A stretch of DNA of 64,000 bases from Planomicrobium okeanokoites. Lineage in GTDB: Bacteria; Bacillota; Bacilli; Bacillales_A; Planococcaceae. The notes under the pieces were generated by a model. It had not been told where the DNA came from and ran no database searches. It worked only from the letters and a program-made list of their open reading frames with translations. A program made the translations under genes and the position numbers. Positions 2,859-29,923 of the stretch are shown piece by piece (positions within the stretch are counted from its first letter, which is position 1; each line of letters opens with the position of its first letter). The DNA is taken from assembly GCF_003428875.1 (NCBI RefSeq), contig NZ_QQRS01000001.1, positions 434,001-498,000 of the forward strand, written 5' to 3'.

Positions 2859-3089
2859 TTAAAGGTCTCTTAAAAAGACTTGAATGCCTACAACCATTAC
2901 GATGCTTCCAGCGACAAAAAAGAAAATTTTAAATAGCCAATAATTCACTTTTGCAGGTAAAGGGAATATCTCCCTTAAAAATCGATAGTCGGGATTCTCT
3001 AAAAATTTCTCTTTGGTAATGAGAAAAATACTCGCATAAATCCCCCATAAGCCAAAAGCAGCCACACCCATTGATAAAATTAAGTCCAT
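2859..3089 (-). CDS. Small two-helix membrane protein, unknown function
   Basis: A 76-residue protein with a hydrophobic helix at each end (about 2-23 and 52-71) separated by a charged loop ('KEKFLENPDYRFLREIFPLP'). The start at 3089 is chosen because GAGGTGG lies 8 bases upstream; the in-frame ATG at 3116 lacks such a site. The helix-loop-helix layout loosely recalls Imm17-type small immunity proteins, but this is a weak resemblance and no function is claimed. Confidence 0.55.
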   Translation of the reverse strand: MDLILSMGVAAFGLWGIYASIFLITKEKFLENPDYRFLREIFPLPAKVNYWLFKIFFFVAGSIVMVVGIQVFLRDL

Positions 3090-3319
3090 GAAACTTACCA
3101 CCTCGGTTTTTATCATTTTTTAGACTCGCCGTTCGCATATTACTTTACCTACCCTTAATAAGAATAATTGAAGACTAATTCCATATTACCCAAAAACAGA
3201 ATGTAACCTAAATGCACTTTTGATACATCCCAATCTACCAAACACTTTCAAATCCATATTAACATTAATTTCCACCATTTCATAAATTACTTGAGCAGCT
3301 TTTATATTGAAGATAAAAC

Positions 3320-3382
3320 CGTTCGTAAAAGTGGATAGCCACTTTACGAACGTCCGCTTTTTTCCAGATACCTTTACGAACG
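3320..3382. repeat. Hairpin plus extra copy of the TTTACGAACG motif
   Basis: CGTTCGTAAAAGTGG (3320-3334) and CCACTTTACGAACG (3339-3352) form a near-perfect inverted repeat with a 4-base loop and a single bulged A, followed by a T-run at about 3358-3363. The arm motif TTTACGAACG recurs at 3373-3382, exactly 30 bases after its first copy. The hairpin with T-run resembles a plus-strand terminator, but no plus-strand gene precedes it. The rest of 3090-3431 holds nothing else recognisable. Confidence 0.55.
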
Positions 3383-3431
3383 CTTTAATCGTTTTAAATT
3401 AAACAACTTTATTATTCATCAATATGAACGC

Positions 3432-3457
3432 AAAAAAGCCGCATAGAATCATGCGGC
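3432..3457 (-). terminator. Terminator of the ATPase gene
   Basis: GCCGCAT and ATGCGGC flank a 6-base loop; read on the minus strand the stem is followed by a run of T. Confidence 0.75.
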
Positions 3458-29401: not shown

Positions 29402-29872
29402 TCAATAGCTTTCAATATCCCATGCATGTTCAATTTCAACTGCGCCTTTCAGCGTCTGGGCTACAGGACAGCCCCTGTCAAAGACTTTTAGAGCCCGTTC
29501 AGCAGCCTCTTCTTTGCCGGCTGGAACTTTCACGTGATAATGGCAGCTGATTCTGGTGATTTTCAAAACTCCGTCCGGCGCTTCAATGACACCTTGTACT
29601 TCCGCTTTTACTTTGTCTGGTGAAGTCGGTATATGACGCGCTTCCAGCGCGCCTGATAATGTACCGACCAGTCAGCCGCCCGCGGCAGCTACGATATGGT
29701 CCAGCGTCGATGGATATTCCGGATCGGTTTCGACTCCATAAAATTCCCGTACACCTCCGTGTACACCGAACATGAGCGGCTCTTTGAAATCGCCGATATA
29801 GGCTTCACGGATTTTATTGGCTGTGTCTTTTTGAAACACTGTGATTTTGGTCAATTCAATAATATCACTCAA
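29402..29872 (-). CDS. OsmC-family protein with in-frame TGA at the catalytic Cys position (candidate selenoprotein or nonsense mutant)
   Basis: Read through one TGA (codon 67, 29674-29672), the frame gives a full-length OsmC-like protein of 156 residues. The context 'HIVAAAGG-U-LVGTLSGALEAR' places the TGA exactly where OsmC proteins carry the peroxidatic cysteine; the second cysteine is kept in 'DRGCPVAQTLKGAVEIEHAW'. No other stop or frameshift occurs. Start is TTG with GGAAGGTG upstream, 51 bases after nifS. Downstream of the TGA an 8-bp hairpin with loop GGA resembles a bacterial SECIS. Two readings remain: selenocysteine insertion, or a single-base TGC-to-TGA mutation or sequencing error leaving a pseudogene. 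No Sec machinery is in the window. Confidence 0.65.
29635..29653 (-). promoter_or_regulatory. SECIS-like hairpin after the OsmC TGA
   Basis: On the minus strand GGCGCGCT and AGCGCGTC pair (8 bp, one G-U) around loop GGA. The loop starts 27 bases after the TGA. Bacterial SECIS elements have a guanine-led apical loop roughly 16-37 bases after UGA. The same bases encode the conserved ALEAR motif, so chance pairing is possible. Confidence 0.4.
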
Positions 29873-29923
29873 AATATCACCTTCCTTTTTGTAAGGATAT
29901 CAATTTACCGATTATTCCGCAAA

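What the first reader, a model, noticed from the sequence alone, without database searches (positions are those of the whole stretch)
29402..29872. OsmC-family gene with a TGA at the peroxidatic cysteine and a SECIS-like hairpin
The frame is intact apart from one TGA, at the exact position of the catalytic cysteine, with the second conserved cysteine retained. An 8-bp hairpin with a GGA loop begins at a distance typical of bacterial SECIS elements. Sec-containing OsmC-like proteins are reported from metagenomic selenoproteome surveys. If true, this organism uses selenocysteine; if not, it is a very recent single-base knockout.
Basis: partly seen in the sequence, partly recalled or inferred. 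Interest (0 to 1): 0.8.

Follow-up and report, generated by a model that had tools for sequence, protein, structure and literature searches.

The report
Selenocysteine OsmC-family redox protein gene
The gene is not broken: its internal TGA very probably encodes the rare amino acid selenocysteine at the protein's reactive site, in a Planococcus-like bacterium that carries the selenocysteine machinery, and every copy examined in related bacteria has that same codon.

Summary
Window 29402-29872 (minus strand) is a 156-residue OsmC-family gene (PF02566), open except for TGA at codon 67, the first redox-Cys position; the second Cys (C135) is kept. The genome has tRNA-Sec, SelA, SelB and SelD, all over their cut-offs, SelD itself Sec-coded. 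In all 70 loci compared (57 named records, 13 genomes; 62 distinct sequences) the codon is TGA, never TGC/TGT. The 8-bp GGA-loop hairpin meets the published bacterial SECIS model in 61 of 61 intact sequences; three of its codons are invariant at nucleotide level and two stem positions change together. All 23 searched genomes with the gene (one copy frameshifted) have tRNA-Sec. Verdict: a selenoprotein gene, not a knockout. It is not the reported marine-metagenome OsmC selenoprotein: 24.9 bits against that model's 95, and no UxxT motif. In a 398-genome phylum sample, Cys-type OsmC proteins scored at most 30.5 bits, full-length TGA members at least 108.9, so the clade looks Sec-only. Peroxidase-type activity is inferred. 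No experiment was possible.

The parts
29402..29872 (-). OsmC-family selenoprotein gene, TTG start, 156 residues including Sec67, terminator TGA
   Evidence: PF02566 59.1 bits, cut-off 27.5; translation; AlphaFold model, made with Cys for Sec, mean pLDDT 90.9, matches OsmC/Ohr structures
29672..29674 (-). In-frame TGA, codon 67, read as selenocysteine at the first (peroxidatic-type) Cys position
   Evidence: TGA in 70 of 70 loci (62 distinct sequences); aligned to Cys in YhfA 1ml8 and OsmC 1ukk
29635..29653 (-). SECIS hairpin, 8 bp, GGA apical loop at 29645-29643
   Evidence: RNA fold z -4.15 for the 51 nt from TGA; meets bSECIS model, -11.8 kcal/mol; codons 75, 76 and 78 invariant in 61 of 61
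29468..29470 (-). Second conserved Cys (C135), the resolving-type Cys of the OsmC fold
   Evidence: 61 of 61; aligned to Cys of GCPVS in OsmC 1ukk
29543..29545 (-). Additional Cys110, common but not universal
   Evidence: Cys in 51 of 61
29878..29886 (-). Shine-Dalgarno-like AGGAAGGTG before the TTG start
   Evidence: Read from sequence; upstream stretches of homologues printed

Best explanation
The gene encodes a selenoprotein of the OsmC/Ohr fold. During translation, SelB carrying Sec-tRNA-Sec binds the hairpin that starts 18 nt after the UGA, and codon 67 is read as selenocysteine instead of stop; the UGA at codon 157 ends the protein (whether a hairpin follows it was not examined). Shown by sequence: intact frame, Sec machinery, conserved SECIS, invariant UGA. 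Inferred from the OsmC/Ohr family: Sec67 is the attacking residue of a dithiol-type redox reaction, probably reduction of organic hydroperoxides or a related electrophile, and forms a selenenylsulfide with C135 that a dithiol reductant reopens. The Sec-containing thioredoxin-like protein of the same genome is one candidate reductant. I put about 0.97 on Sec decoding and about 0.55 on peroxidase-type activity.
For: Machinery: tRNA-Sec, SelA, SelB and SelD over their cut-offs, in one cluster, G000:C12:188057-194099; SelD itself has an in-frame TGA. Site: TGA in 70 of 70 loci. Co-occurrence: 13 of 150 genomes (own included) have the gene, all 13 among the 51 with tRNA-Sec over the cut-off and the 49 with SelA over the cut-off; p = 2.6e-7 if genomes were independent, which they are not. 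Ten more genomes with the gene, one a frameshifted copy, also have tRNA-Sec. SECIS: model met in 61 of 61; GCG CTG _ GCG invariant although GCG is 228 of 881 Ala codons over these genes, 122 of the 228 being these two positions; third bases at nt 24 and 39 coupled (C/T 45, T/C 11, C/C 5, T/T 0; p = 1e-8 without phylogenetic correction). Selection: pN/pS 0.27 before and 0.28 after the TGA. Linkage: in 3 of 13 genomes (G023, G056, G074) the gene lies about 5-7 kb from selD; in the others it is on another contig or far away.
Against: No protein-level evidence was available. The fold of the 51 nt after TGA beats shuffles clearly in the window and L022 (z -4.15, -3.69) but less in L060, L073 and L062 (-2.60, -1.80, -1.46) and not in L055 (z -0.65; 49 of 200 shuffles fold as well); in L060 the minimum-energy fold is a different one. 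The outermost stem pair forms in 29 of 61 and the innermost in 51 of 61. For the chemistry: the nearest characterised folds are distant (best sequence match to a solved structure 29.2 bits, YhfA 1ml8; 11-21% identity in the 50 listed matches), and the Glu recalled for Ohr catalysis has no clear counterpart: 10 residues before Sec is Leu57, with Asp58 next to it. Of the 24 tRNA-Sec-positive genomes of the genus 14 lack the gene, so the Sec trait there does not depend on it.
Confidence: 0.92

Rival explanations
1. A recent single-base knockout (pseudogene) or a sequencing error at an ordinary TGC/TGT codon.
For: Only one in-frame stop in an otherwise intact gene. Frameshifted copies of this gene do occur elsewhere, in L078 and G179.
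Against: The same TGA in 70 of 70 loci, 62 distinct sequences, down to 56% pairwise identity, with similar purifying selection on both sides.
Confidence: 0.01
2. TGA is reassigned (for example to Trp) in this organism, and codon 67 is an ordinary sense codon.
For: The frame is open if TGA is sense.
Against: The gene itself ends in TGA, as do 14 of 61 homologues. The position is Cys in the solved relatives, and tRNA-Sec, SelA, SelB and SelD are present.
Confidence: 0.01
3. The UGA and hairpin act mainly as a selenium-responsive stop: with little selenium a 66-residue product is made, or Cys is inserted, and the full-length Sec protein only when selenium is plentiful.
For: Follows from UGA/SECIS competition in general (recalled). 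The genome keeps three other OsmC-family genes without TGA that could cover the function.
Against: No regulatory evidence. The truncated product would lack C135, and the downstream part is as constrained as the upstream part.
Confidence: 0.05
4. It is a member of the already described marine OsmC selenoprotein family (NCBIfam NF041052; Sargasso/GOS OsmC-like, UxxT).
For: Same Pfam family and Sec as redox residue; weak match of 24.9 bits.
Against: Far below the cut-off of 95 bits. Position +3 after Sec is Gly in 61 of 61, with Thr at +4, so not the UxxT motif given in PMC1088965, PMC2398784 and PMC13188914.
Confidence: 0.08

Closest known systems
OsmC-like selenoprotein of the Sargasso Sea and GOS metagenomes (PMC1088965, PMC2398784, passages seen); NCBIfam NF041052 OsmC-related (seleno)protein
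   Same: OsmC family with Sec, and a SECIS-like hairpin downstream (PMC1088965)
   Different: Motif U-L-[VT]-G-T in 59 of 61 instead of UxxT; 24.9 bits against a cut-off of 95; found here in Bacillota genomes
Cys-type OsmC / Ohr / YhfA proteins (1ukk, 1nye, 1ml8)
   Same: Fold, two aligned redox positions
   Different: Sec instead of the first Cys; 11-21% identity in the listed structural matches; no close Cys version of this clade found in the samples
Bacterial formate dehydrogenase selenoproteins and their SECIS (PMC13188914, passages and one section)
   Same: UGA decoded through a downstream hairpin by SelB
   Different: Different protein family; no TIGR01591 match at E <= 1e-60 in this genome, and those listed for its genus have no internal TGA

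Membership tests
Bacterial selenoprotein gene | In-frame UGA at a redox-active position, conserved | tested here: met
   TGA in 70 of 70 loci; Cys in solved relatives
Bacterial selenoprotein gene | bSECIS model: loop 3-9 nt, stem 4-16 bp, G in the first two loop positions, 16-37 nt UGA-to-loop, energy <= -7.5 kcal/mol (PMC13188914, section read) | tested here: met
   61 of 61 by my own script with ungapped stems; window gene: loop 3, stem 8, GGA, 26 nt, -11.8
Bacterial selenoprotein gene | tRNA-Sec, SelA, SelB, SelD in the genome | tested here: met
Bacterial selenoprotein gene | Selenium in the protein | not testable with these tools
   Needs 75Se labelling or mass spectrometry
OsmC superfamily (PF02566) | Match over the gathering score | tested here: met
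   59.1 against 27.5 bits; 63 PDB matches at E <= 0.001, 46 of the 50 listed titled OsmC or (organic) peroxide resistance
NCBIfam NF041052 OsmC-related (seleno)protein | Match over the curated cut-off | tested here: not met
   24.9 against 95 bits
Sargasso/GOS OsmC-like selenoprotein | UxxT motif | tested here: not met
   +3 is Gly in 61 of 61, Thr at +4
Ohr-type peroxidase | Two redox positions (first Cys/Sec and second Cys) | tested here: met
   TGA67 and C135 in 61 of 61
Ohr-type peroxidase | Catalytic Arg and Glu (recalled) | tested here: inconclusive
   Arg22 in 55 of 61 (Lys in 6); Leu57 at -10, Asp58 next to it
Ohr-type peroxidase | Peroxidase activity | not testable with these tools
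   Needs the purified Sec protein

The most novel reading that the evidence does not exclude
The gene defines an obligately selenocysteine OsmC clade spread over Bacillota, with no surviving Cys orthologue. Here it belongs to a selenoproteome without formate dehydrogenase, made of thiol-redox proteins (thioredoxin-like UxxC, OsmC-U) besides Sec-coded SelD, so that peroxide or thiol chemistry would be what the Sec trait is kept for in these Planococcus-type bacteria. That would make it a test case for a function that Cys cannot replace.
Probability: 0.35. Interest if true: 0.65.

Novelty: new variant of a known kind. Interest (0 to 1): 0.55.

Why it matters
A gene that reads as broken is, by all sequence evidence, a working selenoprotein. 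No NCBIfam model covers it over its cut-off, so annotation relying on such models may record a 66-residue fragment (not checked in any annotated record). It adds a second, distinct group of Sec-containing OsmC proteins, in culturable Bacillota. Because no close Cys form was found in the genomes sampled, it offers a direct test of why selenium is kept: replace Sec67 by Cys and measure what is lost.

Tried and rejected
Knockout or sequencing error: rejected. TGA reassignment: rejected. Membership in NF041052: not met. Gene neighbourhood as a clue to function: little found; within the flanks (up to 3 kb, some cut short) of the 57 loci, the window's cysteine desulfurase and its nadB-like neighbour (name by eye) match in 3 and glycerate kinase in 7. 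Plasmid copies: none in the PLSDB collection at E <= 1e-20. A generic scan for other conserved internal TGAs in fetched loci gave mostly antisense and out-of-frame noise, and both outputs were cut, so I saw only part of them; by eye I kept the SelD, thioredoxin-like and DsbA-like cases. One sequence (L078, frameshifted) was left out of the 61-row alignment; 8 of 70 loci were duplicates, leaving 62 distinct, 61 used. The 57 named records were not themselves searched for tRNA-Sec.

Paper searches: 'selenoprotein, OsmC, selenocysteine' (6 papers), 'selenoprotein, selenocysteine, Planococcus' (0), 'bSECIS, selenoprotein, Bacillus, TGA' (3), 'selenoprotein, Bacillales' (15), 'selenocysteine, organic hydroperoxide resistance, OsmC' (1), 'selenoproteome, Bacillus sp., selD, thioredoxin' (0), 'Sec-containing, OsmC' (4). 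I saw passages of PMC1088965, PMC2398784, PMC9312934, PMC13188914 (one whole section), PMC5029168, PMC1794560 and PMC11944866; the rest as listings. None of the passages seen describes an OsmC selenoprotein in Bacillales. PMC1794560 lists 3 selenoprotein families in Firmicutes/Bacillales without naming them in what I saw, and its main text has no 'OsmC'. Supplements were not read, so prior mention elsewhere cannot be excluded.

Full report
Observation. The minus strand of window 29402-29872 encodes a 156-residue protein with one internal TGA at codon 67 and a TGA terminator at codon 157. It matches the OsmC family PF02566 at 59.1 bits against a cut-off of 27.5. The AlphaFold model, made with Cys in place of Sec, has mean pLDDT 90.9; of its 50 listed matches among solved structures 46 are titled OsmC or (organic) peroxide resistance proteins. 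Residue 67 aligns with a Cys of YhfA (1ml8) and OsmC (1ukk, 1qwi), and C135 with their second Cys, GCPVS in the OsmC proteins. The finding's coordinates, TGA, second Cys and hairpin are all correct.

The organism. The nearest proteins are those of Planomicrobium sp. Y74, Planococcus halotolerans and Planococcus sp. MER TA 32b (92, 90 and 87% identity); the assignment to this group is inferred from that. The genome (3.3 Mb, 99.3% complete) has a tRNA-Sec over the gathering score (62.7 against 47 bits), also called by ARAGORN with anticodon TCA. SelA (558 bits), SelB (367) and SelD (421) all exceed their NCBIfam cut-offs and lie together at C12:188057-194099 with the tRNA. SelD has its own in-frame TGA (GGUGCK). 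Caution on the tRNA model: near its cut-off it also rings in some of the 14 control genomes (over the cut-off in 5 of 14, 3 of 14). The best matches of genomes with the OsmC gene are well above it (58.3 to 81 bits).

Relatives. A scan of the named genome collection gave 57 relatives of 60-92% identity. None of the six peptides used as search patterns spans residue 67, so TGA was not selected for, but a single protein as query reaches close relatives only. With the 13 matches from 150 near genomes, own included, all 70 loci have TGA at the codon and none has TGC or TGT. They reduce to 62 distinct sequences; one frameshifted copy, L078, was left out, giving 61. Of the 150 genomes 51 have tRNA-Sec over the cut-off, 49 SelA and 56 SelD over theirs; two of the 51 (G103, G113) show no SelA and may be false. 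All 13 with the gene have all three. Within the genus 10 of 46 have the gene, all inside the 24 with tRNA-Sec. The probabilities (2.6e-7 and 4.8e-4) assume independent genomes and so overstate the case. A class sample of 398 genomes added six genomes with the gene, one (G179) as a frameshifted copy, and a phylum sample of 398 added four; all ten have tRNA-Sec. So of 23 searched genomes with the gene none lacks tRNA-Sec.

The hairpin. The published bacterial SECIS model (PMC13188914, its section on SECIS elements read) asks for a 3-9 nt loop, a 4-16 bp stem, G in the first two loop positions, 16-37 nt from UGA to the loop and an energy of -7.5 kcal/mol or lower. The window's hairpin has a 3-nt GGA loop, 8 bp, 26 nt and -11.8 kcal/mol, and 61 of 61 homologues meet the model. 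By itself this is weak: 56 of 2,695 TGA triplets in the window meet it and 19 are as stable; and in shuffling tests of six homologues the fold stands out in some (z -4.15, -3.69, -2.60) and little or not in others (-1.80, -1.46, -0.65). Conservation is decisive. The codons GCG (Ala75), CTG (Leu76) and GCG (Ala78) are identical in 61 of 61, while Ala62, Ala63 and Ala64 just before the TGA use all four codons. At the stem base, Gly74 is GGC with Arg79 CGT in 45, GGT with CGC in 11, GGC with CGC in 5, and GGT with CGT, which would put two G-U pairs side by side, in none. 91% of stem cells form standard pairs, against 18-65% when the 3' side is slid by 1-3 nt. The outermost pair forms in 29 of 61 and the innermost in 51 of 61, so the constant core is six pairs. 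The five copies in the four phylum-sample genomes from outside the class (G495 with two, G570, G757, G813) keep the same core by reading of the sequence.

Selection. pN/pS is 0.27 before and 0.28 after the TGA over all pairs; synonymous sites are near saturation (pS about 0.77), but a close pair (window against L022) also shows pS 0.53-0.70 with pN 0.03-0.05. Both halves are maintained as one protein.

No Cys form. In the phylum sample at E <= 1e-4, 8 of 398 genomes matched: six with TGA (lowest full-length member G813 at 108.9 bits; G179 in two fragments) and two with Cys (G092 at 30.5 and G817 at 25.0 bits), ordinary distant OsmC relatives in genomes that themselves have tRNA-Sec. The class sample was cut at 1e-15 and the near-genome search at 1e-10, so they cannot speak to weaker Cys matches. 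The window's genome has three further OsmC-family genes without TGA. The clade looks Sec-only within what was sampled; this is absence in samples, not proof.

Selenoproteome. Two further Sec genes were found in this genome: SelD, and a thioredoxin-like protein with UGPC at C12:196808-197119 (PF00085, 70.0 bits with Cys for Sec). In the (incomplete) match list, 20 rows carry TGA, in 19 genomes, own included, all of them in the tRNA-Sec list. No formate dehydrogenase of TIGR01591 was found in the genome at E <= 1e-60, and those listed for its genus contain no TGA. So here the Sec trait does not rest on that enzyme. It does include Sec-coded SelD, in line with the statement in PMC1794560 (passage) that FdhA or SelD is present in every selenoproteome then known. 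A complete list of Sec genes was not possible. In G023, G056 and G074 the OsmC gene lies about 5-7 kb from selD, and in G023 and G074 within about 2 kb of the thioredoxin-like Sec gene.

Function. The mechanism of decoding follows from established bacterial Sec biology: SelB binds the SECIS and delivers Sec-tRNA at UGA (PMC13188914, passage). The chemistry is inferred from the OsmC/Ohr fold: Sec67 attacks a peroxide or related electrophile, C135 resolves it, and a dithiol reduces the selenenylsulfide. Against a plain Ohr assignment, the recalled catalytic Glu has no clear equivalent, and the nearest solved sequence is YhfA, whose function I recall as unknown.

Known or new. OsmC-like selenoproteins with UxxT are known from marine metagenomes (3 sequences in PMC1088965; a table row with 5 in PMC2398784) and are listed in the reviews PMC9312934 and PMC13188914. 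NCBIfam has a model named OsmC-related (seleno)protein, NF041052; that it stands for the marine family is my inference. This protein scores 24.9 against that model's 95 and lacks the motif. I therefore file it as a new variant of a known kind. Whether Sec arose once or twice in the superfamily was not tested.

Noticed in passing
L079:14809-15120 (own genome C12:196808-197119, minus): Thioredoxin-like selenoprotein gene with UGPC; TGA conserved in relatives that have tRNA-Sec, in some as WUPSC or WUPGC.
   Followed up: partly
L079:11150-12199 (own genome C12): SelD is itself Sec-coded (GGUGCK); 24 of 24 tRNA-Sec-positive genomes of the genus show a single TGA in SelD.
   Followed up: partly
L053 near 2363, L067 near 2360; L096:2181-2834: A DsbA-family gene (PF01323 for the L096 copy) with TGA in a YSDYVUPFC motif lies next to the OsmC Sec gene: upstream on the same strand in L053 and L067, divergent from it in L096. 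A further likely selenoprotein.
   Followed up: partly
L078 match 3001-3442; L101/L104 (G179:C43:46390-46853): Frameshifted copies of the OsmC Sec gene; L078 has lost 11 nt inside the hairpin between short repeats (by comparison with L067). Decay or assembly error not distinguished; G179 still has tRNA-Sec.
   Followed up: no
L034 and L053: Records titled Chryseobacterium sp. ISL-80 and Pseudomonas sp. ISL-84 carry DNA that looks like Bacillaceae; probably mislabelled or contaminated.
   Followed up: no
L079:12307-17776: Next to selD: a transporter permease (PF00528), a phosphonate-type binding protein (PF12974) and a PF04143 (YedE-type) transporter, candidates for selenium uptake.
   Followed up: no
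Genus genomes such as G002, G008, G017, G020, G028: tRNA-Sec-positive genomes with no OsmC Sec gene and no TGA among their listed thioredoxin-like matches; what besides SelD keeps the trait there is unknown.
   Followed up: no
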